Source: Ezakiella peruensis (lineage in GTDB: Bacteria; Bacillota; Clostridia; Tissierellales; Peptoniphilaceae). Taken from it: a stretch of DNA of 64,000 nucleotides. Below the pieces are notes generated by a model. It was not told the origin of the DNA, searched no databases, and worked only from the letters and a program-made list of their open reading frames with translations. Of the stretch, positions 20,786 to 34,686 are shown one piece after another (the first letter of the stretch is position 1; the number at the start of each line of letters is the position of its first letter). The stretch spans positions 907,365-971,364 of the forward strand of contig NZ_LT962469.1 in the NCBI RefSeq assembly GCF_900215725.1, given 5' to 3'. The translations under genes were made by a program, and so were the position numbers.

Positions 20786-21841
20786 TTACAGATTGCGGTC
20801 GATATGACAAACAAAGTCGTGGATATTTGTAACCATAGTCTTTACTTCTAGGGTACCACGGTCTGATAATTTATTTACAGAGAACTCTTGCAAGTCGATT
20901 GAGTAAATAAATACAGGTCTGATTTCTCCATCAAATTCATTGTAGGATGGGGTCATATTTCCTGATGCAATTGTATGAAGTACTGTTGATAGACAAATGA
21001 GCATGCCAGTTTTTCTGGTGTGTGTGCGCATTTTGTTTTGAGCTTCATATACATTGTCGATGGTCTCTGGCATTGTGTATGGGTCTCTGATGCTTGCTGC
21101 AAGTACAAAGTCCTTGTTTTCCTTAACCATTGTGTACATGATACCACTCTTTAAAACACCTTGGTCAACTGCATCCTTGATTGATCCAGCTTGTCTAATG
21201 GTGCTTACTGCATCATATTTTAGTGAATCAAAATCTCTGTCTGAGTTTTCAAAAAGATTTTTTGTAATATCAACAGTCGCAAAAGTATCCCCTGTTAAAA
21301 TTGCATCTACATAACCCTTTTTGATCAGGCTTTCAAAAGCCTTTGAAGCGCGTTTATCATTTACAAGTGATGGTCCAATAACCCAAGTAATTGGCTCATT
21401 AAATGATTTAACATATTTCATGATTTCATAGAGCTCATCATAGTCTTTTGAGTAAGCAGTCTCACGGCTTCTGCCAGTTCTAAAGGCAAAAGTATCTCCG
21501 CATTCTCCACCTGTGGCAAAGCCCTTGGTGTACATATAAATTCCTTCGCTGGCATCTTCTGTCCTACCAACAATAACCTTGTCGCCTTTTTTTAGATTTC
21601 TAAATTCAATGATTTCAACGCTGGTTGGGCTGGTGATAATAGGACAAGTATCCATCCTACTTTCAACTGCCAAAACCCAATTGCCATCTATCTTAAAGTA
21701 TTCAGGATAAATTGAAAGCGCATGATAGTTATCTGGAGCAACCCCGTCCATAGGAGCTTCCACATATTTGCAATTAGGGGCGTTTACTAAAAATTCTTGA
21801 TTCCAATCTGGTTCTTGATATTTTTGAAAATTATAAGCCAT
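20786..21841 (-). CDS. TIGR00300 (LOR/SDH-domain) family protein, copy 2; possible ornithine cyclodeaminase type
   Basis: 351 residues. It resembles the TIGR00300 family, the domain found at the C-terminus of cyanobacterial AgrE/ArgZ and in archaeal ornithine cyclodeaminases: PEYFKIDGNWVLAVESRMDTCPII, RNLKKGDKVIVGRTEDASEGIYMYTKGF, and VIGPSLVNDKRASKAFESLIKKGYVDAILTGDTFA. It directly follows copy 1 (stop and start abut; GGAGG lies in the end of copy 1). Compared with copy 1 the TGDTFATVDI site differs from the family AGNALAVHDIE, so this copy may be catalytically different or a partner subunit. Enzymatic role is inference from the family. Confidence 0.65.
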   Translation of the reverse strand: MAYNFQKYQEPDWNQEFLVNAPNCKYVEAPMDGVAPDNYHALSIYPEYFKIDGNWVLAVESRMDTCPIITSPTSVEIIEFRNLKKGDKVIVGRTEDASEGIYMYTKGFATGGECGDTFAFRTGRSRETAYSKDYDELYEIMKYVKSFNEPITWVIGPSLVNDKRASKAFESLIKKGYVDAILTGDTFATVDITKNLFENSDRDFDSLKYDAVSTIRQAGSIKDAVDQGVLKSGIMYTMVKENKDFVLAASIRDPYTMPETIDNVYEAQNKMRTHTRKTGMLICLSTVLHTIASGNMTPSYNEFDGEIRPVFIYSIDLQEFSVNKLSDRGTLEVKTMVTNIHDFVCHIDRNL

Positions 21842-22897
21842 TTATTCCTCCACTAAAGCATTTCTAACATTTACACAAAAATCTTGTACGTTAGTAACAA
21901 TACTATCTACAAGTTGTCCTTCTCTTTCATTTACCACAGAATTTGTTGCATAGTCACTGATGTCAATAGAACAAATATAAGTTCCGTAGATCTCATCACC
22001 CTTAACCCTATACAAAGGAGCAACTTCTGTAGCACTTACTGAGTGCAAGAGGGTTGCCAGGGTGATAATAATATCTGCATCCTTGACGGCATCGTGCATA
22101 GCATTTAGTCCGCAAGTAACATTGTGGCGAACTTCTGGTAGAGGTCCGTCATCTCTGATTGATCCGCAAAGAACAATTGGCATTTCTTTTTCAACTAACT
22201 TTTTAATAAAACCATCCTTAACCTTGCCTGAATCAATAAAAGCCTTCAAAGAATCATAGTGTCTGGCTTCATTTAACAAGTCCAAGTGATTGTAGTGGCC
22301 GTTTGGAACTGACTCTTGAGTATAAATATTTTGTCCAAGAGCTGTGTTTAAAAAGCCCCCTTCAAGGTCATGAGTAGCCATGGCATTACCTGCAAGTAAA
22401 ACTTGAACATAACCTGCATCAACCAAGTTTGCAAGTGCATTTCTAGTATCGTAGTCAAAAACAACTGCAGGGCCAAGTACCCAGGCAATCTTGCCTCCCC
22501 TTGCCTTAACTTCTTTCATCATAGCAAGAAGTTTTTCATAAGCGTCAGATGAACCCTTAAACATTGGCATTTTTCCGCCGTCTAAATCATCACTAAAGGC
22601 ATCCGCCCTATAAATTCCGCACTTTTCACATGGGCAATCGCCAATCAAAACCATGTCCCCAACCTTTAAGTCCCTAGGTTGAACACATTTTAATTCTCCA
22701 TCATTAACCACAACTCCCCTTAAAAAATGGTTTGTCGGTAGCTTAAATTCTCCATCAACCTTTATGTATTCCACATAAGGTTTGGTCAAATAAGCGCCAA
22801 CAGGCATGCAGCCGTCTTTTTCCACTTTTTTAAAAGTCGCATTTTTATAAGCATCTTCATTAATCTTTTTAATCTTACTTACTGGAAAAACTGTCAT
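21842..22897 (-). CDS. TIGR00300 (LOR/SDH-domain) family protein, copy 1; possible ornithine cyclodeaminase type
   Basis: 351 residues, paralogue of the next gene. Family features: YVEYIKVDGEFKLPTNHFLRGVVV, LKVGDMVLIGD, VLGPAVVFDYDTRNALANLVDAGYVQVLLAGNAMATHDLEGG, and GHYNHLDLLNEAR, which match the family's AGNALAVHDIE and G-H-x-H-H stretches closely. It has a C-P-C-E-K-C cluster at about residue 93-98 not seen in copy 2. A -10 TATAAT (22918-22923) stands upstream with a weak -35, back-to-back with the promoter of the DUF1294 gene. If active it would convert ornithine to proline and ammonia; that is family inference. Confidence 0.68.
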   Translation of the reverse strand: MTVFPVSKIKKINEDAYKNATFKKVEKDGCMPVGAYLTKPYVEYIKVDGEFKLPTNHFLRGVVVNDGELKCVQPRDLKVGDMVLIGDCPCEKCGIYRADAFSDDLDGGKMPMFKGSSDAYEKLLAMMKEVKARGGKIAWVLGPAVVFDYDTRNALANLVDAGYVQVLLAGNAMATHDLEGGFLNTALGQNIYTQESVPNGHYNHLDLLNEARHYDSLKAFIDSGKVKDGFIKKLVEKEMPIVLCGSIRDDGPLPEVRHNVTCGLNAMHDAVKDADIIITLATLLHSVSATEVAPLYRVKGDEIYGTYICSIDISDYATNSVVNEREGQLVDSIVTNVQDFCVNVRNALVEE

Positions 22898-23250: not shown

Positions 23251-23347
23251 AATTTTACCTTTTATATAAATATAAGTTTATTCATATATAGAATGGGGTA
23301 AGGCCATAATAAGAGGGCAATTATTTTGATAAAGCAAAGGAGTTATG

Positions 23348-24481
23348 ATGAACAATTTTGAATTTAATTTTAATCGAATAAGAACAAATATAAGGTCCAG
23401 CCGGCAGATTTCTCTGACAATTTTCTGCGCCATCCTTATATCTGTTTTTATTTTAACCTGGGCCAGCTCAATAATACTGGCAACTGTAAATCACAGGACC
23501 TACCTTGACAAAATAACTTATAAGGACAGCGAAACCCGTGCAAGACTAATGTTCAGTGGTTCTTTTAATTTTAATGATAATCCCATGGATATTTCTTACA
23601 TAAGGAAAACTATGGATGAGAATTTCAATTCTCCCTACAATTTTTCTATTTCCACTGGTCCAACTGCCACCATTAACGGAGATATTATTGCTTGTGAGAT
23701 AACTGGCATAAGCGAAAACTTTATTGACGATAGCTTTGTAATTTTTTCTGGCGATCCGAATAAAATATATACAGAAAATGCCATAGCTATTAAAAAATCT
23801 ATGACTGAAGAATTAAAATTATCTCTGGGCGATAAGGTTAATATTAATGGGAGTGATTTTACTTTAGCAGCAATTGTTGATGAGTACAAGTGTTTCACCC
23901 CTATTTTTATGAGTCTAGAAAATTACGATAAATTATTTTACAATCAAAACAATATTCTGGACTTATACATAGATAATTTATCTGGACTTGAGCGAAGTTC
24001 TTTGGTCCACAAACTTAATAGACTTTTCAAAAACCCAAATCTCTGGGATATTAAAGTAGAAAATGTAAATAAAAGGTACGAAGTCCTTGATGACTATATA
24101 AGTAAAGCCATAAGTGATGAAATCATCCCAATTATAATGGTATTTGTTTTGGCAATAATAGCCATATTTATCTTGTATTTTGGATTAATCAGGTGGAGAA
24201 AAAGAAACATAGGCATACACATGAGCTTGGGCGCAAGGAAAAAAGATATTATTATGGATGCTAGTCTAGAGGTCTTTATCTATATGTTTACCTCAACTCT
24301 TATAAGCTTTTTGATTATAAATATCTTTTATAAATACTTGGCTTATATTTCTAGTATCTATAAAGGACCCCTCCTTTATCTCTTAGTCCTAGTTATTTCT
24401 GCACTGACATCAATAGTCATAGGCATATTCTCAGCCAAAAAGATATCATCCAAGCCAATTACTGAAATTATAGGAGGTTAA
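23348..24481 (+). CDS. FtsX-like ABC permease, subunit A of pair 1
   Basis: 377-residue membrane protein of MacB/FtsX topology: one N-terminal membrane segment (about 22-46), a ~205-residue extracellular domain, then three C-terminal segments (about 256-280, 303-325, 340-365). RWRKRNIGIHMSLGARKKDI between the second and third is the coupling region for the ATPase. The ATG at 23348 is chosen over the ATG three bases before because it aligns with the paralogue (MKNFEFNF) and spaces better to AAAGGAG. It is the first gene of the six-gene cassette and nearly identical at its first 45 residues to the A subunit of pair 2, while outer domains have diverged. Confidence 0.85.
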   Translation: MNNFEFNFNRIRTNIRSSRQISLTIFCAILISVFILTWASSIILATVNHRTYLDKITYKDSETRARLMFSGSFNFNDNPMDISYIRKTMDENFNSPYNFSISTGPTATINGDIIACEITGISENFIDDSFVIFSGDPNKIYTENAIAIKKSMTEELKLSLGDKVNINGSDFTLAAIVDEYKCFTPIFMSLENYDKLFYNQNNILDLYIDNLSGLERSSLVHKLNRLFKNPNLWDIKVENVNKRYEVLDDYISKAISDEIIPIIMVFVLAIIAIFILYFGLIRWRKRNIGIHMSLGARKKDIIMDASLEVFIYMFTSTLISFLIINIFYKYLAYISSIYKGPLLYLLVLVISALTSIVIGIFSAKKISSKPITEIIGG

Positions 24482-24482
24482 T

Positions 24483-25838
24483 ATGAAATATTCATTACAC
24501 CGAGTGAATTTAAGAATATACCATAGGATTGTCCTATATCTATTTTTAATTCTTGAAATTGCAATAGGGTCTGCCCTTTTGTTTTATTCATATTCTCACT
24601 TCATAGCTGATAAAAAAGAGTATGATAAAACTAATAGATATATCGAAGCCTCAACATCTGCAATTTTGGCTAACCCAAATTTAACAAAAAATATAACCTA
24701 TGATGATTACTTATATTTAAAAGAAAATATCTTTAAAAACACCCAAGCTTCATATACTGTCAATACAAATCTGAATTTTGGAATTGGTTATGATAGCTTT
24801 AATATTGCCCTGGTTTTCATGGACCCAGATGAGCTTAAGGAAACTTTTGGCATTGATCAAGAACCTGGCAAGGCCTACATAGGTGAAATGGCCAAAAAAG
24901 AGCTGCAGAAAATTCTTGGTTTAAAAAAGAAAAGGCCACATTTTGAAGTTGATAGTAACAGTGTTGGTTATTTCCCAGATAAGGGTTACTACTACGAATT
25001 AAATGATATGGATATAGAATTTACAAAGTCTTCTATTAAATTTCCAAATTTAGATACAGAATTAGAATTTGTAGATATGCCAGAAGATACAAAAAACAAT
25101 GCCATAGCAACTGGCGACGTCATACAATTAAAATCAGATCAAGTACACAAGGATATGTGTAAAAGTATACAGCCAGAAGGTCGCTTTATGATTATCGTAC
25201 CCGCTGAATATGCCAGAGATATAGATAAAATTATTAGGCCTTGGAAACATCCAACTCTAGCTTTAATATATACAACTATCGATCCAAGAATAGTCGTTAA
25301 AGACTTTAAAGAAAGTCCAGAAGAAATCTGGCAGGCCATAGATTACTTAAAATCTAAACATCCCGAGGCTAATTTCAATCTGGATGACCCCAGAGCCTTA
25401 AATAAAAAATGGATAAAAGAAAAAAGGCAAAGCATGTACAAATATATGCTTACAAGTATCCTATTGTTATCAACTGTATCCTTAATAACATCAGGTATAT
25501 TTTTGCTCCTACTTCAAAGTCGTAAAAAAGAAATTGCCATATCCCTAGCTTGTGGATCGACCATTAAAACTCAAATCAAAGAGCTAATCTTGGAAATAGG
25601 TCTATTGATATTATATGGAATGATTGTGGGAGTTGCCCTTGCCTATATGTACGGAGATATAGTGGAACAAATTAGTATAGCCAAGACCAATTATATGACA
25701 GGCACTACCATTGTTACCAATATAGAACCCTTTATAGTCTTGCTGATAACTGGACTAATAATCTTGCTAACCAGCTCCATTTTAATAATCAAAGCTATTA
25801 AAAAACTAAATCCAATTGAAATTTTGCAAAACGAATAA
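24483..25838 (+). CDS. FtsX-like ABC permease, subunit B of pair 1
   Basis: 451 residues, same four-helix FtsX layout but with a longer (~300-residue) outer domain. N-terminal helix at about 15-38; C-terminal helices begin with YMLTSILLLSTVSLITSGIF, followed by RKKEIAISLACGSTIKTQIKELILEIG, the coupling region, and a typical tail NPIEILQNE. It starts one base after the A gene with AGGAGG overlapping A's end, so A and B are made together. Likely pairs with A1 and the single ATPase at the end of the cassette. Substrate unknown. Confidence 0.85.
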   Translation: MKYSLHRVNLRIYHRIVLYLFLILEIAIGSALLFYSYSHFIADKKEYDKTNRYIEASTSAILANPNLTKNITYDDYLYLKENIFKNTQASYTVNTNLNFGIGYDSFNIALVFMDPDELKETFGIDQEPGKAYIGEMAKKELQKILGLKKKRPHFEVDSNSVGYFPDKGYYYELNDMDIEFTKSSIKFPNLDTELEFVDMPEDTKNNAIATGDVIQLKSDQVHKDMCKSIQPEGRFMIIVPAEYARDIDKIIRPWKHPTLALIYTTIDPRIVVKDFKESPEEIWQAIDYLKSKHPEANFNLDDPRALNKKWIKEKRQSMYKYMLTSILLLSTVSLITSGIFLLLLQSRKKEIAISLACGSTIKTQIKELILEIGLLILYGMIVGVALAYMYGDIVEQISIAKTNYMTGTTIVTNIEPFIVLLITGLIILLTSSILIIKAIKKLNPIEILQNE

Positions 25839-25907
25839 GAAAACTTTATATAATTATCAAATATATATATTCGTTTATTTATAATTTTACTTGGGTAACA
25901 TGGAACT

Positions 25908-25930
25908 AAGAAGACATAAGCAAGTTCTAT
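25908..25930. repeat. Left arm of inverted repeat around the small secreted-protein gene
   Basis: AAGAAGAC, three bases, AGCAAGTTCTAT. The reverse complement of the right arm (26324-26347) reads AAGAAGAC, four bases, AGCAAGTTCTAT: twenty matching positions. The arm ends two bases before the TATAAT of the gene's likely promoter. Confidence 0.85.
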
Positions 25931-25932
25931 AC

Positions 25933-25938
25933 TATAAT
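25933..25938 (+). promoter_or_regulatory. -10 element of the small secreted-protein gene
   Basis: TATAAT stands 17 bases before the start codon and 4 before AAAGGAGGGG. No good -35 is seen, so control by an activator, or no independent promoter, are both possible. Confidence 0.4.
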
Positions 25939-25954
25939 ATAAAGGAGGGGTATT

Positions 25955-26311
25955 ATGAAGAAATTTACATCAATTTTGTTAATTACATTAGCAGTTGTTT
26001 CTTTTTTAGTAACACCTACTATGGCAAAAAGTATGCAGTTAACGACTGATGTTATCAGTCATGAGCCAACCATTATTTCTCGTGGTGTATTTAGGCAATG
26101 CCAAGCTTGTGGTAATGGAGCGCTTGATCTTGTCGACACCATTTGTGAAACTGAAAGATTTGCTTACGATAGTAAATGTGCTCATTATCCACATGGCTAT
26201 GACTATTATTATAGTACAGATGCAAATTATTACTATAAGTGCTCTAATTGTGGACATAGCAAGTTAGATAACGCTAAAAGCTATAGGATGGAGTGTCACG
26301 GAACATATTAA
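25955..26311 (+). CDS. Small secreted seven-cysteine (zinc-ribbon-like) protein in FtsX cassette
   Basis: 118 residues. A clear Sec signal peptide (MKKFTSILLITLAVV..., likely cleavage after TMA at 24) is followed by a ~94-residue mature protein with seven cysteines (49, 52, 64, 75, 96, 99, 114). CQAC and CSNC resemble a zinc ribbon; between them lies KCAHYPHGYDYYYSTD, rich in tyrosine. I recall similar C-x-x-C...C-x-HG...C-x-x-C secreted proteins beside ABC exporters in Firmicutes but cannot name a family. A strong AAAGGAGGGG site suggests high expression. Placed between two permease pairs and bracketed by inverted repeats, it is probably the cargo, ligand or product that the transporters act on. 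Bacteriocin, signal or envelope stress factor all remain possible. Confidence 0.75.
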   Translation: MKKFTSILLITLAVVSFLVTPTMAKSMQLTTDVISHEPTIISRGVFRQCQACGNGALDLVDTICETERFAYDSKCAHYPHGYDYYYSTDANYYYKCSNCGHSKLDNAKSYRMECHGTY

Positions 26312-26323
26312 ATTAATCATCAA

Positions 26324-26347
26324 ATAGAACTTGCTTGGAGTCTTCTT
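26324..26347. repeat. Right arm of inverted repeat around the small secreted-protein gene
   Basis: ATAGAACTTGCT, four bases, GTCTTCTT, starting 13 bases after the stop codon and running into six T. Pairs with the left arm at 25908-25930. In a transcript reading through from pair 1 the two arms could form a long-range stem around the whole ORF, with the T run after it. Confidence 0.85.
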
Positions 26348-26371
26348 TTTTATTAAACAAAAGGAGTTGCA

Positions 26372-27502
26372 ATGAAAAATTTTGAATTTAATTTTAATCG
26401 AATAAAAACAAATATAAGGTCTAGCCAGCAGATTTCTCTGACAATCTTTTGTGCCATCCTTATATCTGTTTTTATTTTAACTTGGGCCAGCTCAACGATT
26501 CTAGCCACTATCAACTATCGGTCATACTTAAATCAAGTCTCTTATAATCCTGACGAAGTCTATGCCAGATTGTCCTATTCCAGAAACTATTCTACTGAAA
26601 ATAAACTGACTGCTGACTTTGTCCAAAAAGCTATGGCATATGAGTTTGACAATGACTACAATTTTGCTATGTCAACTGGGACCAACATTGCCATTAATGG
26701 GCATATAATGAATTTACAAATAGCAGGGCTTGGAGATAACTTTATTGATGATACTTTTGTAGTCTTGGATGGTGACATCAATAAAATTTATAGTGAGGAT
26801 GCAATCGCCCTTATAGAATCTCTAGCTAACAAGCTAAATCTCTTTGTTGGGGACATGGTAAATATAAATGGTAAAGACTTTGAGCTTTGTGCCATCGTAG
26901 ATGAATACAAGTGCTTTGACTACATATTTATGTCAATAGAAAATTACGAAGACCTATTTGCAAATGTTAGCATGGCTCTGCATTTGTATATAAAAAATTT
27001 GTCACAGGGAGATATCAGCTCTCTAACCCACAAGCTAGACCGTATTTTCAAGGCTCCAAATCTAAGTAATATAAGAGTTGAAGAATACAAGGATAGAAAT
27101 GAACTTTTGGATTACTATGTAGAGAATGCTGTTTCAAAAGATATTATTCCAATAATTATAATCTTTATCCTGTCTATAATTTCTCTTGTAGTCTTATACT
27201 TTGGCCTTATTAAGTGGCGGAAGCGAAATATCGGCATCCACTTAAGTCTGGGCGCCAGTCCAAGAGATATAAGGCTGGATTCAACTTTGGAAATCCTTGG
27301 ATATATGCTTGTCTCTACCCTGATTAGTTTTATAGCTATCAATATATTTTACAATCAATTATCCTACATGACATCAATTTTCATAAATAAATGGCTTTAC
27401 ATTTTTGTGCTAGCTATAAACATATTGTTAGCTCTTGCAATCGGGGCCCTAGCAGCCAGAAAAATTACCTCAGAGCCAATTAACGAAATGATAGGAGGAT
27501 AA
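26372..27502 (+). CDS. FtsX-like ABC permease, subunit A of pair 2
   Basis: 376 residues, paralogue of the gene at 23348 with the same four-helix layout. The first ~50 residues (FNFNRIKTNIRSSQQISLTI..., the helix, and WASS) and the coupling loop KWRKRNIGIHLSLGAS are almost the same, whereas the outer domain (about 55-250) is clearly diverged. This pattern suggests duplication of the A-B pair followed by change of the ligand-facing part. AAAGGAG lies 7 bases before the ATG. Confidence 0.85.
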   Translation: MKNFEFNFNRIKTNIRSSQQISLTIFCAILISVFILTWASSTILATINYRSYLNQVSYNPDEVYARLSYSRNYSTENKLTADFVQKAMAYEFDNDYNFAMSTGTNIAINGHIMNLQIAGLGDNFIDDTFVVLDGDINKIYSEDAIALIESLANKLNLFVGDMVNINGKDFELCAIVDEYKCFDYIFMSIENYEDLFANVSMALHLYIKNLSQGDISSLTHKLDRIFKAPNLSNIRVEEYKDRNELLDYYVENAVSKDIIPIIIIFILSIISLVVLYFGLIKWRKRNIGIHLSLGASPRDIRLDSTLEILGYMLVSTLISFIAINIFYNQLSYMTSIFINKWLYIFVLAINILLALAIGALAARKITSEPINEMIGG

Positions 27503-27503
27503 A

Positions 27504-28847
27504 ATGAAATATTCCAAACATCGTGTAAATTTAAGATTGTATCATAGGATAGCCCTCTATATATTTTTAGTATTGGAAATAGCCCTGGGCTCTGCCCTCT
27601 TATTCTATTCATATTCACAGTATATAGTAGACAAAAAAGAATTAGACTCTACTATGAAATACATCGAAGATTCAACTACTTCTATTATGGCTAGGCCAAA
27701 TACAGTTGAGTATTTAACTTATGACGACTATACTTACATCAATGAAAATATATTTAAAAACACAAAATCCCACTACACAGTAAATGCTACTTTGAATTTT
27801 GACTATAGCAGAACTGGTAAAATCGCCTTGGTCTTTATGAGCCATGACGAGATGAAAGAGACTTTTGGTATCAGTCCCCAAGCAGGAACGGCTTATATAG
27901 GTGAAGAAGCCAAAAAAGTCGTTGAGATTTTAAGCAAATTGCAAAAATCCAGAGCTCAAGTTACAATAGATGATGGCATAGTTAGCTTTGGTGCAAAGGG
28001 CGGTCATTACTTGGAACTAAATGACATGGATATAGACTTTACTGCAAATTCCATTAAGTTTTTAGACCAAGAGTTTGAATTTCAAGATATGCCGTCACCT
28101 ACAAAAGAAAAAATGCTGATAACCAGCCCCGTCATTCAGACAATCGAAAATGGCAAAAATGAATCTCTCCTGCCCAACCAGCCAAAGGGAAAATATATGA
28201 TTATTGTACCTGTCGAATATGCTAAGGAAATAGATAAGATAATCAGGCCTTGGCAAAATAGAAAAATGGCAGAGTTCTATAATAATATAGCACCAAGAAT
28301 TTCAATTAAAAATTTTGAAAAAGCTCCCGAAGAAGTATGGCAGGCAATAGATTATTTAAAATCAAAATACCCCAATGCCAACTTTGCTATTGACGATCCC
28401 AAGGCCAGCAATGAAGCTTGGATAGAATATAAAAAGCAAACCATGTCCAAGTACCTGCTTATAAGCATCTTGCTCCTAGTCATAGTATCGGTTATCACAT
28501 CGGGTATATTCCTGCTCCTCCACCAAGGCCGCAAAAAAGAAATCGCCATTTCTCTGGCCTGCGGATCCACCGTCAAAGGCCAAATCAAAGAGCTCCTCAT
28601 GGAGATCTCCGCCCTTATTTTTTATGGCATGGTCGTTGGAGTCGCCGCTGCATATATGTACGGAGATATAGCTGAGAGGAGATTTTTTGAAAAATACAAA
28701 GCCTACAGGGGCTTAAATATAAATACAAATGTAGAACCATTTTTAATACTCATATTAGCAGCAGTAATTATTCTAATAATATCATCTGCCCTCTCAATCA
28801 GGGCAACACGCAAGCTAAATCCAATAGAAATTTTGCAAAATGAATAG
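27504..28847 (+). CDS. FtsX-like ABC permease, subunit B of pair 2
   Basis: 447 residues, paralogue of the gene at 24483. Helices at about 15-38 and three near the C-terminus; coupling region GRKKEIAISLACGSTVKGQIKELLMEI and tail NPIEILQNE are the same as in pair 1. The outer domain keeps blocks such as MIIVPVEYAKEIDKIIRPW and EEVWQAIDYLKSKYP in both copies. Starts one base after A2 with AGGAGG inside the junction; the ATPase gene follows after 9 bases. Confidence 0.85.
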   Translation: MKYSKHRVNLRLYHRIALYIFLVLEIALGSALLFYSYSQYIVDKKELDSTMKYIEDSTTSIMARPNTVEYLTYDDYTYINENIFKNTKSHYTVNATLNFDYSRTGKIALVFMSHDEMKETFGISPQAGTAYIGEEAKKVVEILSKLQKSRAQVTIDDGIVSFGAKGGHYLELNDMDIDFTANSIKFLDQEFEFQDMPSPTKEKMLITSPVIQTIENGKNESLLPNQPKGKYMIIVPVEYAKEIDKIIRPWQNRKMAEFYNNIAPRISIKNFEKAPEEVWQAIDYLKSKYPNANFAIDDPKASNEAWIEYKKQTMSKYLLISILLLVIVSVITSGIFLLLHQGRKKEIAISLACGSTVKGQIKELLMEISALIFYGMVVGVAAAYMYGDIAERRFFEKYKAYRGLNINTNVEPFLILILAAVIILIISSALSIRATRKLNPIEILQNE

Positions 28848-28856
28848 GAGGACCAA

Positions 28857-29519
28857 ATGATTAAAATCAGAAATCTATGCAAAACATACACAGACTCAAT
28901 AGTTGAAACCCAGGCCTTAAAGGGAATCGACCTGGACATTGACGAGGGCGAATTCGTTGCCATTATTGGCAAGAGCGGCTGTGGTAAGTCCACCCTCTTA
29001 AATATTATGGGCGGTATGGACCAAGCCACCAGCGGAGAATATTATTTCGACGATGTCGACGTCAGAAAATTAAAGGATGCGGATCTGGCCAAGTTTAGAA
29101 ATAAAACAATTGGCTTTGTCTTCCAAGCCTTTAACCTAATAAACGAAATCAATTTAATAGAAAATGTTGCCGTTCCGCTGGGCTATAGAGGCGTTAGCAA
29201 GAGAGAAAGAGATGTAGTTGCCGAGGACATGCTTGAAATCGTTGGCCTCAAAAAGGAAAAGAGGAAAAAGCCCACAGAATTATCCGGCGGACAAAAACAA
29301 AGGGTCGCCTTTGCCAGAGCCATAGCCAACGAACCACGGGTAATTTTGGCAGACGAACCCACAGGTAACCTGGACCAAAAAAACTCACGTGAAATCGTCG
29401 ACCTCCTTCACCAAGCTCACAAAAACGGAACGACCATTGTAATGGTAACCCACGACATGGACCTGGCCAAGGAAGCCGATAGGATAATAGAAATGGAAGA
29501 TGGGAAAATTATTTCATAA
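28857..29519 (+). CDS. ABC transporter ATP-binding protein (MacB/LolD/BceA type)
   Basis: 220 residues, nucleotide-binding domain only. Walker [11 protein letters not shown]-loop FVFQAFNLI, signature LSGGQKQR, Walker [13 protein letters not shown] and switch MVTHD. The ADEPTGNLD form is the mark of the MacB/LolD/BceA group that works with FtsX-like permeases as mechanotransmission pumps rather than channels. It is the only ATPase of the cassette and presumably energises both permease pairs. No sensor kinase or response regulator lies nearby, unlike Bce systems. GGAGG precedes the start; a strong terminator follows. Confidence 0.93.
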
Positions 29520-29561: not shown

Positions 29562-29596
29562 AATCGCAAATCATTTTAGATTTGCGATTTTTTATT
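29562..29596 (+). terminator. Terminator of the FtsX/ABC cassette
   Basis: AATCGCAAATC and GATTTGCGATT form a perfect 11-pair stem with a 6-base loop, followed by TTTTTATT. Confidence 0.85.
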
Positions 29597-29793: not shown

Positions 29794-32700
29794 TTAGTTT
29801 TCTTCATCTTCATCTTCTTTTTTCTTTTTTAGAGCTCCTAGTCCCAAGAAACCTGAACCTAAAACGCCCATTAGATATCCATACAAGGATGCATTAAGGC
29901 TACCACCAGTCTTTGGCAATGTCTTAGCACCTGATGAAACACTTTCATTAATTTCATTAGGATTATTCTTTTTACCTGTACTGTCTTCGCCATCAGTTTC
30001 AGAAATGTCTTCAGTGCTTTCAACATTTTCTACTGACTCTTCTGTTCCTGGTTCGGATGGTTTCTTTTCACCTGTTTCGCTTGGTTCTTCAGGTGTTTCT
30101 TCACCTTGTTCAGACGGAACATCTTCGCCTGGCTTTTCTGGATCTTCTATACCTGGTTCTTCAGTGCCTGGTGTGCCTGGTTCGTTTGGTTTATCTTCAT
30201 CTTGTGTGCCTGGCTCTTCAGGTGTATCTGGTGTATCTGGTTTTTCGTCTGGGTTTTCGTCAGTATTTCCTGAATCTCCTCCACCTGGAGTTTGAGAATC
30301 TTCTTCGCCTTGTTTTTCCGGATCTTTTGAATCTTCTCCAGGAATTGGACAAACATTCTTTGTTCCGACTTCAATAATCTTATCTTGTTTTTCTGTGATT
30401 GTCTTAGTTTCCCTAGATACTTCCTTGCTGTTTTCAATTTTTACAGTAGTTTCAGTTTTACCAACAACACCTTCTTGGATTACATTAGTCTTGCCAGATT
30501 CCAGATTTGGGTTTTCTCTAATGATTATATCGTAAGCTTTTTCGCTTTCATAAGTGAATTCTCCGTCAGTCTTAGAACCGTATTCTACAACCTTGTTCTT
30601 TGGCTCAGTTCTTTCCTCTTTGACTTCAAGCTTACCAGTTTCCTTGTTGAAAGTTGTTGTGTATTTTACAGATCCCTTAGAACCTTCTTCGATTGTATTT
30701 GTTTCACCTTCTTTTAGGTCTGGATTATGTCTGTACTCAGTATCATGTCCAAGTTCAGTTTCTTTAACTACTGGTTTTACACCAATTCTTACTACCCTAT
30801 CTTCTTTTTCTGTAATAGTTTTTGTAGTTTCTGTCGGATTACCAACTGGCTTAGAGTCCTTAATCTTTTGAGTAATTGTAACTTCTTCCTTGCCTGCTTT
30901 TCCTTCTTTTTCAATCTTTTGGAAACCAGCTTCAAGAGTATCATCATAGATTACCTTAGTTTCGTAAGGAATTTCTCTTTCAATAGTCTTTGTAGTTTCA
31001 CCTTCAGATGATTTTCTACCAATCTTAATTAATCTTTCTTGAGGCTCTTTAGTTGTCTTGAATTCGCCTTCTTTAGTTTCAACAACTTTTCCATCTTTGA
31101 TTACAAGAGTATTTGTTCTTTCTTGTTCTCCTGGTGAGCCTGGGGTGACGACTTTTTCTTCACCTGGTTCTAATGAGTCATCATACTCATATCTTGTTTC
31201 AAAAGGAAGTTCCTTCTTTTCAACTATTTCATGAGTACCTTCGTTAGTTCCCTTACCTACTTGGATAAGAGCATCTTCTGCGGCAACTTCTGTGACAGTT
31301 GGCTCGCCTTCGACTTTAGAATTTTTGATTATCCAGGTTGTTGTTTTTGTACCGACCTTGCCTGGTTTTACAATCTTGTATTCGCCTTTTTTAAGTGTAT
31401 CTACTTCTTCTACCTTATATTTGAATGGCAGTTCCTCTTTGTGTTCTACCTTGCCTTCGGTGTTTCTACCTAATTTTATAATTCTCTTTTTAGGAGCCTT
31501 AGTTTCAGTAAACTCACCTGTTTCAGTCTTTGTTACATTTCCGTCCTCTATTGTAAGAGTAATATCTCTCTTCTTTTCTCCGGCTTCACCTTTTTGAACT
31601 TCTTTGGTTTCCCCAGGAGCAAGGCTATCATCAAATTGGATTTCAGTTTCAAATCCTACTTCAACCTTTTCTTCAATCTTGTGAGTTCCGTCATTTACAC
31701 CTTCACCAACGTGAATTTCTCTAATTTGTGGTTTTTCTATTTCTTGTTCTTCTTCTTTTACGATTTTTGAATCTTCAATAGTATAGGTTATTTTCTTAGA
31801 GCCTTTTTTACCTTCGGTGATGACTTTGATTTCGCCCTTTTTAAGATTTGGATCTTTTTCAACCTTTGTTTCAAATGGAATTTCTTCAGTCTTTTCAACC
31901 TTTCCATTCGTACCATAAGCCACAAATTGCACTTCTGTACTTTTTATACCAACTTCAATTAGTTTTTGGTCTTTGTCTTCCTCATAGTAGTGGGCTGTTA
32001 CTGGTATATTTAAAAGTGCACCGTCAATTGACTGGCCTTCCTTAGGATTTGGAACTGTTGCACTTACCTTACCTGTCTTTTCATCTATTGTAACTTGCCA
32101 TTTATTACCCTTATCATCTGTAATGAATTTATTACCAGCCTCATCTGTATCTAGAGTATCTGGAAGCGTATACTTGCCTGGTCTTCTATTGTATTTATCT
32201 TCAGTGTTAAGAATGACATCTGAAACAAGCTTATCTTCTGCCTTGCCAGCCTTGGCGTTGTAGCGAGGAGTCATGTTAGATTTTTCTTCAATGACGAAGT
32301 AGGCGTTGGCTTCTTCAGTTATATCTTCCCCTGGTTTTTGTTCATCTACATAGTGAGAAATTACTGGGACTGTCAGTTTTTCCCCACCATTAAAGTCTAA
32401 AGGATTTACTGGTTTAGCACTTACTTTACCTGTTTTCCCATCAAGAGTTACAGTCCATTTGTTACCCTTATCATCTGTAGCCATTTTATTACCCGCCTCA
32501 TCTGTTTCTAGAGTATCCGGAAGCGTATAATGGTCCGGTTTAATTCTCTTAGTATCTTGTGCAACTGTTGCCTCTGATGTTTGTTTATTAACCGGGAAGT
32601 TAACTTGGGCATCGTATTCCGGCTTGATATAGTCTGATTCTTGGACAACAAAGTGGAACCAGTGTGTGTCTGTTGAGCCGTTTGTATAGGTGTATTCAAC

Positions 32701-34686
32701 TGGTATGGCTACAAAGTCTCCTGCCTTGGCGGATTTCGGTGGAGTGATGGTGAACTTAGAAATATCGTGTTCATCAACATCTAGTTTCCACTGGTCTTCT
32801 GCTCCCTTGCCTTCATTTTCCTTGTTGATAAAGTCCATTATCAGCTTACCGGAAGCTTCTCCCTTCTTATCTGCTTCGTTCATTTCATCAGCAGTCTTTT
32901 GATTTGGTTTTGGACTTTCCGGCTTGTACATCTCAACATCGAAAGCTTCCCCTGGTTTTACCTTTGAATAAGTCTTCTCAGATGTGTCCTCTTTGTGACC
33001 ATCTTTAAAGGATTGGTCATAGTATCTTGTATCATCTAGGTTTAGCTTAAATCCACCTATAAGGTTATAGTGGTCGTAACGGTCTATGCCTTGCTTATCG
33101 ATTGTGACATTAGTTCCCTTGTGATTGATGTCGGCAGTACCAGCTTCTGAGCCAGTGTATTTTCCTGTTTCACCAAACTCATCTGGTGTTTTTGCTATAT
33201 TTCTAAATTCTTCAGCTGTTCTCGGACGAGCAAAGAATTTAACATCTAGATTTTGAAGAGCCTTGTAATCAGGTGTATTGAAGATTGAGTCTTCATTAAT
33301 GACAGTTTTTCCATTTTCGTCCTTCTTTAGGGCACCTTCCGGCAACTTAACGTGGATATTGCCATCATCTCCTATATAGGCACTTGCCCCTGGTACGATA
33401 TCGCCATTAATAGGATTGTATACTTGGCCGACTAGCCTTTCCTTGGCATTGTCATCGATATTGTCTACCTTGACACCAGTGTTGATATCTTGGCCTTGAA
33501 CAAATACCTTATCATTGTATTGCCCACTTAGTTTCATTAGCTCAAGCTTGTCGTTTTCATTTGGCCATGGATTTACCTTGTAATCTAAGGTGAAGCTGCC
33601 TCCAAAAAACTTCACTCCTGGGTTGTCTTTTGTGTAATTATCCTTCATACCAAAGGAAGTAGAGTCGTTTTCATTATTATTGATATGCTTTAGGGTATCT
33701 TCGCTAGCTTCATAGTGAAAGTTCCTTTGCCTTCCACCAGCGGTCATTTCTCCTTTTTCATCTGGCGTAAATGTTACATCAGGGGATTCAGGTGTTAATT
33801 TATCTCCCTGACCCATCATTGGTTTTTCGCCTAATTCTGCTGGAACAAGTCCAGAATCTGTAACATAAATCCTAGTATAGGTTCTTTGTCCAGTCTTCTT
33901 GTCTATGGTGATTTGGTAACCATATTCAGTCTTACTTGGTGATGTTTCGGATGGGTTTTTAAGTTCAAATTTAAAACCGTCTTTTTCTTCTTTTTCATCA
34001 GTCTTATAGAATTCTTGGTTGGTATCTCCCGGTTGGAGGTCTGTTTCCCTATAACGTTCAGATTCATTATAGTCTTTAATCTTTGCTTCATCTTCAGAAT
34101 AATTAGGCTCAGTAACTTCTTCTCCTGCCTTTTGAACTTGGGCTTGATTTTCTTCTGATGTTTCTAGCTTTTCTTCTTCATCTGCTTCGTTTGCATCTAG
34201 ATTAAAAATATTCTCTAAAGTGTCATCTTTAATAAATTCATCTAGAGTAATACCATCTTTTCCTTCAGTTGAATTTTCTGGATCAGACGAATTATTTACA
34301 TTGTTTTCTGAGTCATCTGACTGGCTTTCATCAGCAGGACCTTCATCTTCACTAGTCCCATTGACACTACTTAGAGCTAGTTCTTCTTTATTGTCTGAAT
34401 TTAGAGCTTGATCTTTTTGTGGCAATATATTTTCCACAGCAGCTGCAAGTGCTTGATCATATTGTGCTATTTCTTCGTCTTTTGCTTCTTCAACTATAGC
34501 AGTTGGATTTTCTACAGTTTCGGCCTTAACTTGTGTGGCTCCACCTGCAATCATAACCCCAGCTATAGAGATCCCTAAGATTGACTTAGTAATATTTGAT
34601 TTAATTTTGTTTACTGCCTCATTGGACATAGGGACGACGATTTTGTATTCGTTTATGTCTTTTTGTGAATTTTGTTTCCTATTCAT
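29794..34686 (-). CDS. Giant LPXTG wall-anchored adhesin with seven G5 domains
   Basis: 1630 residues. A long signal peptide (1-55, hydrophobic 35-50, cleavage near VKA-E) leads to an acidic linker (to ~215), an N-terminal region of about 400 residues with GQDINTGVKVDNI and GGFKLNLDDTRYYDQSF (likely ligand-binding, not identified), then two or three ~110-residue YPDG/Rib-like repeats (about 610-925) with KYTLPDTLDTDEAGNKF and GNKW-x-VT. Residues 930-1444 are seven G5 domains of 68-79 residues (P-F-E-T-x-x-x-x-D..L-x-x-G-E...G-x-x-G), the long and short forms alternating. A P/E/D/G/T-rich wall-spanning part follows, then LPKTG (1590-1594), a membrane helix and KKKK tail for sortase. G5 stalks occur in SasG/Aap-like biofilm proteins; some G5 proteins bind zinc or glycosaminoglycans. 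A lone cysteine (~1446) ends the last G5. Ligand unknown. Confidence 0.93.
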   Translation of the reverse strand: MNRKQNSQKDINEYKIVVPMSNEAVNKIKSNITKSILGISIAGVMIAGGATQVKAETVENPTAIVEEAKDEEIAQYDQALAAAVENILPQKDQALNSDNKEELALSSVNGTSEDEGPADESQSDDSENNVNNSSDPENSTEGKDGITLDEFIKDDTLENIFNLDANEADEEEKLETSEENQAQVQKAGEEVTEPNYSEDEAKIKDYNESERYRETDLQPGDTNQEFYKTDEKEEKDGFKFELKNPSETSPSKTEYGYQITIDKKTGQRTYTRIYVTDSGLVPAELGEKPMMGQGDKLTPESPDVTFTPDEKGEMTAGGRQRNFHYEASEDTLKHINNNENDSTSFGMKDNYTKDNPGVKFFGGSFTLDYKVNPWPNENDKLELMKLSGQYNDKVFVQGQDINTGVKVDNIDDNAKERLVGQVYNPINGDIVPGASAYIGDDGNIHVKLPEGALKKDENGKTVINEDSIFNTPDYKALQNLDVKFFARPRTAEEFRNIAKTPDEFGETGKYTGSEAGTADINHKGTNVTIDKQGIDRYDHYNLIGGFKLNLDDTRYYDQSFKDGHKEDTSEKTYSKVKPGEAFDVEMYKPESPKPNQKTADEMNEADKKGEASGKLIMDFINKENEGKGAEDQWKLDVDEHDISKFTITPPKSAKAGDFVAIPVEYTYTNGSTDTHWFHFVVQESDYIKPEYDAQVNFPVNKQTSEATVAQDTKRIKPDHYTLPDTLETDEAGNKMATDDKGNKWTVTLDGKTGKVSAKPVNPLDFNGGEKLTVPVISHYVDEQKPGEDITEEANAYFVIEEKSNMTPRYNAKAGKAEDKLVSDVILNTEDKYNRRPGKYTLPDTLDTDEAGNKFITDDKGNKWQVTIDEKTGKVSATVPNPKEGQSIDGALLNIPVTAHYYEEDKDQKLIEVGIKSTEVQFVAYGTNGKVEKTEEIPFETKVEKDPNLKKGEIKVITEGKKGSKKITYTIEDSKIVKEEEQEIEKPQIREIHVGEGVNDGTHKIEEKVEVGFETEIQFDDSLAPGETKEVQKGEAGEKKRDITLTIEDGNVTKTETGEFTETKAPKKRIIKLGRNTEGKVEHKEELPFKYKVEEVDTLKKGEYKIVKPGKVGTKTTTWIIKNSKVEGEPTVTEVAAEDALIQVGKGTNEGTHEIVEKKELPFETRYEYDDSLEPGEEKVVTPGSPGEQERTNTLVIKDGKVVETKEGEFKTTKEPQERLIKIGRKSSEGETTKTIEREIPYETKVIYDDTLEAGFQKIEKEGKAGKEEVTITQKIKDSKPVGNPTETTKTITEKEDRVVRIGVKPVVKETELGHDTEYRHNPDLKEGETNTIEEGSKGSVKYTTTFNKETGKLEVKEERTEPKNKVVEYGSKTDGEFTYESEKAYDIIIRENPNLESGKTNVIQEGVVGKTETTVKIENSKEVSRETKTITEKQDKIIEVGTKNVCPIPGEDSKDPEKQGEEDSQTPGGGDSGNTDENPDEKPDTPDTPEEPGTQDEDKPNEPGTPGTEEPGIEDPEKPGEDVPSEQGEETPEEPSETGEKKPSEPGTEESVENVESTEDISETDGEDSTGKKNNPNEINESVSSGAKTLPKTGGSLNASLYGYLMGVLGSGFLGLGALKKKKEDEDEEN

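What the first reader, a model, noticed from the sequence alone, without database searches (positions are those of the whole stretch)
23348..29519. Two FtsX-like permease pairs, one ATPase and a seven-cysteine secreted protein in one operon
Seen: gene order A1-B1-small secreted protein-A2-B2-ATPase, all same strand, with A1/A2 and B1/B2 clear paralogues whose membrane and coupling parts are nearly identical but whose outer domains differ. Known: MacB/BceB/DUF1430-type systems move or sense envelope peptides, and FtsX-type pumps use one ATPase dimer. Inference: a duplicated pump with altered specificity, acting on the small protein made between the pairs (export, immunity or signalling). Two permease heterodimers sharing a single ATPase and no two-component regulator is unusual. 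I know of no described system with this exact layout.
Basis: partly seen in the sequence, partly recalled or inferred. Interest (0 to 1): 0.75.

Follow-up and report, generated by a model that had tools for sequence, protein, structure and literature searches.

The report
Twin membrane pumps with secreted protein
A bacterium carries two related membrane pumps that probably share one motor, and between them a small secreted protein that turns out to belong to an unnamed family present in several other bacteria; the pairing looks meaningful but is not exclusive, and its job is untested.

Summary
Confirmed: A1-B1-small-A2-B2-ATPase, one strand, 23345-29519. A1/A2 are 57% and B1/B2 59% identical. 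One sister species has the same six-gene order; the other genomes searched did not show it. (1) The small protein is no orphan: a motif scan found relatives in Erysipelotrichaceae, Traorella, Lachnospiraceae and Halothermothrix records, later also G407 and G982, sharing CxxC..C..CxxC..CH; no Pfam or NCBIfam model reaches its cut-off in those scanned. Of nine other loci, two lie beside comparable ABC genes, three beside M28-type peptidases, so the link recurs but is not exclusive. The seventh cysteine is not conserved. (2) A third A/B pair has no such ATPase nearby, yet its B subunit keeps B1's ATPase-facing ends and loop: one ATPase may serve three pairs. The small gene changes fastest (dN/dS 0.56 against 0.01-0.17). 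Best guess: a secreted effector with self-protecting type VII pumps, working like, but not belonging to, lactococcin 972 systems. Function is inferred, not shown.

The parts
23345..24481 (+). A1: FtsX-type permease subunit, 378 aa, four TM segments, ~215-residue outer domain
   Evidence: ORF, PF02687 38.2 bits, hydropathy
24483..25838 (+). B1: FtsX-type permease subunit, 451 aa, four TM segments, ~300-residue outer domain
   Evidence: ORF, PF02687 40.7 bits, hydropathy
25908..25929 (.). left arm of a long inverted repeat; overlaps a promoter-like site 25911-25938 in front of the small gene
   Evidence: (duplex -35.4 kcal/mol, reached by 0 of 1000 shuffles; in the sister 4 of 1000); promoter-like site, where the scan as a whole is not above chance (38 found, 32.0 expected, sd 4.7)
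25955..26311 (+). small secreted protein, 118 aa, signal peptide (read by eye), 7 Cys of which 6 are shared with the sister species; member of a wider unnamed family
   Evidence: ORF; family alignment; model; one hydrophobic segment 6-24
26325..26347 (.). right arm of the inverted repeat, between the small stop codon and the A2 start, followed by a T-run
26372..27502 (+). A2: paralogue of A1 (57%)
27504..28847 (+). B2: paralogue of B1 (59%)
28857..29519 (+). ABC ATPase of the MacB/LolD/FtsE kind with the catalytic motifs
29562..29589 (+). terminator-like hairpin (11 pairs, T-run) after the ATPase

Best explanation
Shown by sequence: two type VII (FtsX/MacB-fold) A-B permease pairs made by a block duplication, one ATPase, and between them a member of a small secreted Cys/His protein family. 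Inferred: the ATPase dimer docks on each A-B heterodimer (A1B1, A2B2, and probably the third pair A3B3 about 835 kb away on the same contig), so the pairs are exchangeable heads on one motor with different outer specificity. The small protein leaves through Sec, folds outside into a three-stranded beta protein held by metal (two four-ligand sites) or disulfides, and acts on the envelope of other cells. The pumps act from outside the membrane by mechanotransmission and protect the producer by pulling the protein, or what it binds, off the membrane. This works like the lactococcin 972 arrangement but with an unrelated small protein.
For: Architecture. Order kept in the sister. The ATPase scores 228.3 bits with the Lcn972-type model TIGR03608, third after LolD and DarD; TIGR03608 is the best NCBIfam model of the first fused ABC beside the L045 small pair (136.7 bits). 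L045: two small genes, a 443-aa protein, then two ATPase+permease fusions with one TM, an outer domain and three TM, one outer domain short and one long as in A and B. L047: two small genes, then an ABC ATPase cut by the contig end, 38% identical to the first L045 fusion's ATPase part. Fast change of the small gene between the two species: dN/dS 0.56 against A1 0.17, B1 0.07, A2 0.10, B2 0.09, ATPase 0.011; Fisher p 2.7e-6 against B1, 0.012 against A1; six cysteines are kept. Shared ATPase: 14 of 16 FtsX matches lie within 4.4 kb of an ATPase match; only A3 and B3 do not. B3 keeps B1's N-end 8/11, coupling loop 16/28 and C-end 8/11 while its outer domain is 71/282; G520's B, which has its own ATPase and a similarly diverged outer domain (59/282), keeps 4/11, 10/28 and 1/11.
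Against: No activity was found recorded for any member of the small family. 3 of 9 other loci have an M28-type peptidase beside the small gene, 1 a sugar-type importer, 3 no partner seen. The two L045 fusions have no FtsX match in Pfam up to E 0.01 and do not match A or B in profile comparison (probability 0.7-5.8%), so the likeness there is topology only; the second does best with other ABC models; L047 is truncated. Fast change could be relaxed constraint and rests on two genomes. The A-side control is weak: A3 13/28 against up to 12 for an unrelated permease, and A3's N-end (5/21) and C-end (1/15) are not kept. A 535-aa exporter with its own ATPase lies near A3/B3 here (not seen in the sister). 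The signal peptide was read by eye; no predictor was run.
Confidence: 0.38

Rival explanations
1. The small protein is a partner of the pump, not its cargo: an extracellular adaptor or ligand that the A/B outer domains hold and switch on, as FtsEX does with EnvC and cell-wall hydrolases. The two pairs hold it, or its targets, differently.
For: Type VII pumps often drive outside partners (PMC11466899, passages; PMC7668044, search listing with abstract start). The small family stands next to quite different envelope proteins: ABC pumps, M28-type peptidases, a solute-binding protein, as a general accessory would.
Against: It changes much faster between the two species than the pump it would have to fit. 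The related pairs A3/B3 and G520 A/B have no small Cys protein of this family nearby in the ORFs read.
Confidence: 0.27
2. Neighbours only: the small gene is its own unit with its own promoter, sitting between two pump pairs that respond to some envelope peptide or lipid; no functional link.
For: An inverted repeat brackets the small gene, with a promoter-like site on the left arm. 7 of 9 other family loci show no such pump beside them, though two of these end at a contig edge (L050, L067). Gaps of 116 and 60 bases separate it from B1 and A2, whereas the other gaps from A1 to the ATPase are 1, 1 and 9 bases.
Against: Order kept in the sister; two other distant loci pair the family with ABC genes.
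Confidence: 0.22
3. The small protein is a secreted metal (zinc) carrier or sensor: two sites of four ligands each, C49 C52 C96 C99 and C75 H77 C114 H115, and the pumps or peptidases are its clients.
For: C49, C52, C75, C96 and C99 are invariant in 12 of 12 rows; C114 and H115 in 90% or more. Model: three long strands that place the CxxC pairs towards one end and CxH and CH towards the other (the clusters are my reading of the strand order, no coordinates were available). Weak zinc-ribbon matches below cut-off. M28 peptidases are zinc enzymes (recalled).
Against: H77 is missing in the 3 rows from M28 loci, just where a zinc carrier would be expected. Cysteines outside the cell can equally form disulfides. 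No model cut-off is reached.
Confidence: 0.13

Closest known systems
Lactococcin 972 systems (structural gene plus orf2-orf3, a putative immunity ABC; PMC4055356, passages seen)
   Same: Small secreted protein beside an ABC system; ATPase close to the Lcn972-type model TIGR03608. That the Lcn972 protein is Sec-exported and its permease FtsX-like is recalled
   Different: Small protein cysteine-rich and not matched by any lactococcin family in Pfam up to E 10; permease is two separate genes and doubled; TIGR03608 and TIGR01654 cut-offs not reached
MacB / type VII ABC, LolCDE, FtsEX
   Same: FtsX domain over cut-off in all four permeases; ATPase of this group; heterodimer plus ATPase dimer as in LolCDE (recalled)
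   Different: LolD, FtsE, DarD and MacB model cut-offs not reached; two pairs per ATPase gene; no adaptor gene among the six
BceAB-type peptide detoxification modules (PMC11466899, passages; PMC7438565, search listing with abstract start)
   Same: Type VII fold, Gram-positive, possible peptide target
   Different: Bce permease has ten TM helices in one chain and works with a two-component system; here four TM per chain and no such gene among the adjacent ones scanned
Multi-client ATPases such as MceG (PMC9947336, search listing with abstract start)
   Same: One ATPase serving several permease systems
   Different: Other ABC system; sharing here is inferred, not shown
YbbAP-TesA (PMC12646458, search listing with abstract start)
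   Same: Type VII ABC tied to an extracytoplasmic partner protein
   Different: Partner is a lipid hydrolase; this small protein has no enzyme motif that I recognise

Membership tests
Type VII (FtsX/MacB-fold) ABC systems | FtsX C-terminal domain over curated cut-off in permeases | tested here: met
   4 of 4 over 25.5 bits
Type VII (FtsX/MacB-fold) ABC systems | four TM helices per chain with one large outer domain after the first | tested here: met
   hydropathy, 4 of 4
Lactococcin 972 system | structural protein of the Lactococcin_972 Pfam family (PF09683, number recalled) | tested here: not met
   not among the 8 Pfam matches listed up to E 10 (HMMER filters drop most matches above about 0.1)
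Lactococcin 972 system | ATPase over TIGR03608 cut-off 254.85 | tested here: not met
   228.3 bits
Lactococcin 972 system | permease over TIGR01654 cut-off 189.35 | tested here: not met
   A1 18.4 bits; B1, A2 and B2 not listed up to E 10; A3 20.7 bits
LolCDE / FtsEX | ATPase over LolD (307.75) or FtsE (264.85) cut-off | tested here: not met
   248.5 and 216.6 bits
BceAB module | ten-TM permease and adjacent two-component genes | tested here: not met
   four TM per chain; no such gene among the adjacent genes scanned
Small Cys/His secreted family (this work) | CxxC ... C ... CxxC ... CH with signal peptide | tested here: met
   12-row alignment; G407 (6.7e-13) and G982 (3.9e-8) were found with the 9-row profile, which held neither of them
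Shared-ATPase system | physical assembly of one ATPase with several permease pairs | not testable with these tools
   only genome inventory and segment conservation

The most novel reading that the evidence does not exclude
One ATPase drives three different FtsX-type heterodimers that differ mainly in their outer heads, a plug-in pump with exchangeable specificity, and two of the heads handle a secreted protein of a family that no Pfam or NCBIfam model covers and that is spread over several lineages of Firmicutes.
Probability: 0.2. Interest if true: 0.75.

Novelty: new variant of a known kind. Interest (0 to 1): 0.5.

Why it matters
If the small family is a set of secreted effectors with matching pumps, it is a new class of antimicrobial-like proteins that a short motif finds and that no Pfam or NCBIfam model reached here. 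If one ATPase really serves three type VII permease pairs, it would be a natural test of how these pumps couple one motor to different outer domains, and a warning against assigning one ATPase per permease pair from gene order alone.

Tried and rejected
Mobile insertion: the inverted repeat round the small gene was first taken as terminal repeats. Its right arm has no second copy at 2 or fewer mismatches in 6 genomes; the pattern had the right arm's spacing, one base more than the left arm, so left-type copies could have been missed. Rejected as a multi-copy element; a one-off element is not excluded. Plasmid or phage origin: no match of the small protein in plasmids or phages, of B1 in plasmids, or of the L047, L054 and L065 small proteins in plasmids. 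Viral contigs: B profile none; two-row small profile one 28-residue signal-peptide match, L040, set aside; motif 3 loci, one with a translated motif in a zinc-ribbon-like protein, set aside; three single-protein scans none. B profile in genome contigs: none (the own genome may be left out there). The two-row small profile gave 15 matches besides our own genome in 398 genomes, E 0.003-0.05: 11 looked at and judged chance, 4 set aside unread (L027, L028, L033, L036). The nine-row profile matched 8 of 398 genomes: own, G407 and G982 kept; G678, G847, G882, G928 and G1003 set aside unread for long unrelated frames or many stops. In G982's family 1 of 4 genomes matched, G982 itself. In G407's family 5 of 160 matched: G407 itself, L069 read and rejected, L070-L072 set aside unread. 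Of 12 motif loci 5 were kept and 7 judged chance. The BLB8/JUQZ bacteriocin match (E 0.13) covers only residues 1-36; rejected. Profile against solved structures gave nothing convincing for the small family (best E 0.028, ribosomal eL42); B profile best MacB E 0.0092, A profile best MacB E 0.019. Gene conversion: in the first 46 codons A1 and A2 use the same codon for 32/40 shared residues against 0.26-0.48 elsewhere; noted, not pursued. The B1 model (job) never finished, and no fold search ran.
Full report
Observation. The six genes are real, complete and on one strand at the stated place. All four permeases pass the FtsX cut-off, each with four hydrophobic segments and one outer domain, shorter in A than in B. 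A1/A2 and B1/B2 are 57% and 59% identical. A1 and B1 show no significant BLASTP match (best E 0.16); profiles of the A and B families match over 155 columns of the C-terminal half (probability 96%). Synonymous divergence between the copies is high (dS 2.8 and 2.0), so the duplication is old. The two plus-strand terminator-like sites of the region lie after the ATPase.

Where else. Among 6 genomes of the genus the small protein is in 2, own and G002. B matches at E 1e-10 in 2 of 130 genomes of the family and the same 2 of 249 of the order. G002 has the same six genes in the same order, with the same genes on both sides. A profile of B found, among 391 genomes drawn from the class, own and G520 only (up to four candidates per genome were scored). 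G520 has a propeller protein, ATPase, A and B in a row and no small Cys protein of this family in the ORFs read. This genome and G002 also hold a third pair, A3/B3, behind three lipoproteins (one of two scanned matches a propeller family) and a thioredoxin-like lipoprotein; in G002 the A3 frame was listed as 295 aa against 371 here.

The small protein. Between the two species it is 82% identical while A1 and B1 are 97%; six cysteines are kept and Cys64 is not. A degenerate DNA motif for CxxCG-CxHxxxGxD-CxxCG gave 12 loci in the named genome collection, 5 of which hold 7 relatives. Features that the motif did not ask for recur in them: a signal-like N-end in 6 of 7 by eye, PR before the first Cys in 5 of 7, a closing CHG in 4 of 7. 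The nine-row profile made of these, the window protein and its sister then found G407 (6.7e-13) and three genes in G982 (best 3.9e-8) among 398 genomes. No Pfam or NCBIfam model reaches its cut-off in the members scanned; weak zinc-ribbon matches recur; PHROGs gives only weak matches (best E 0.0025). The AlphaFold model from 8 rows has mean pLDDT 71, pTM 0.46, blocks of 77-92 from residue 51 on, and three long strands. With CxxC 49/52 before strand 1 and CxxC 96/99 at the second turn, and CxH 75/77 and CH 114/115 towards the other end, the layout suggests two four-ligand sites; that is my reading of the strand order, no distances were available.

Neighbours of the family. Besides the window and its sister, 9 loci were read. 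L045: tandem small genes, a 443-aa protein, two ATPase-permease fusions of MacB-like topology. L047: tandem small genes, an ABC ATPase cut by the contig end, and an HTH/TPR regulator. L050: a 420-aa protein upstream, contig end downstream. L051: none. L054: directly followed by a solute-binding protein (SBP_bac_1, 24.5 bits, cut-off 26) and two importer-type permeases. L065 and L066: directly followed by an M28 peptidase over cut-off. L068: followed by a protein like that of L066 (by eye). L067: none seen before the contig end. No further family gene turned up in the five source genomes. So a comparable ABC occurs in 2 of 9 and is not the rule.

One motor, three pairs. The genome has 16 FtsX matches and 34 ATPase matches at E 1e-20. 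14 of the 16 lie within 4.4 kb of an ATPase match; A3 and B3 have none of those within 50 kb. Yet B3 keeps the N-end, the coupling loop and the C-end of B1 far better than its outer domain, and better than the B of G520, which has its own ATPase and a similarly diverged outer domain. In a local comparison B3 matches the B1 loop at 16 of 28; seven ORF stretches from six other FtsX genes of this genome (one gene, near C2:313 kb, was not compared) match at 5-10, and A subunits at 9. The A side is less clear: A3 13 of 28 in the loop against up to 12 for another permease, and A3's two ends are not kept. A 535-aa exporter with its own ATPase lies downstream of B3 here but was not seen in the sister stretch.

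Regulation. The small gene is bracketed by an inverted repeat with arms of 22 and 23 bases, present in both species; duplex energy -35.4 kcal/mol, reached by 0 of 1000 shuffles (sister -33.2, 4 of 1000). A fold of the whole stretch pairs the arms, z -2.39, with 3 of 100 shuffles as stable. The left arm overlaps a promoter-like site, in a region where such sites are not above chance. It may be a long-range stem on read-through transcripts or a pair of operators.

Mechanism. [quoted passage not shown] PMC11466899, passages). A fast-changing secreted protein, doubled pumps with diverged heads, an ATPase near the Lcn972 type and tandem small genes beside ABC fusions elsewhere fit effector plus self-protection best; the M28 and importer contexts fit a general accessory protein. 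I put effector with protection at 0.38, partner at 0.27, unrelated neighbours at 0.22, metal carrier at 0.13.

Filing. It is a type VII ABC system by tested features; it is not a lactococcin 972, LolCDE, FtsEX or BceAB system by tested features, though it may work like the first.

Noticed in passing
L019:1431-7920 (G000 C1 about 89.4-95.9 kb) and L021:6202-12688: Third A/B permease pair without a MacB-type ATPase nearby, behind three tandem propeller-like lipoproteins and a thioredoxin-like lipoprotein; propeller, ATPase, A, B also in G520 (L039:7668-11697).
   Followed up: partly
L021:7655-8542: The A3 frame of the sister species is listed as 295 aa against 371 aa here, so it may be interrupted there.
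   Followed up: no
L065:9355-11706, L066:1907-4271, L068:1597-3963: Small Cys family gene followed by a secreted M28-type peptidase gene, in two genomes of different families.
   Followed up: partly
window 23348-23485 and 26372-26509: First 46 codons of A1 and A2 share far more synonymous codons (32/40) than the rest, in both species: gene conversion or a DNA-level constraint.
   Followed up: partly
window 25908-25929 and 26325-26347: Long inverted repeat bracketing the small gene, with a promoter-like site on the left arm.
   Followed up: partly
window 29794-34686 (-): 1630-aa LPXTG surface protein with seven G5 stretches and a pAdhesive_10 domain; a 1416-aa counterpart lies at the same place in the sister (L020:1686-5936).
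   Followed up: no
window 20786-22897 (-): Two tandem 351-aa proteins with an ArgZ-like C-terminal domain.
   Followed up: no
L045:1103-2434, L047:1673-2920, L050:1082-2344: A 415-443-aa protein stands near the small gene in these three loci; the L047 one is an HTH/TPR regulator, the other two match no family, and L047 and L050 do not match each other significantly.
   Followed up: partly
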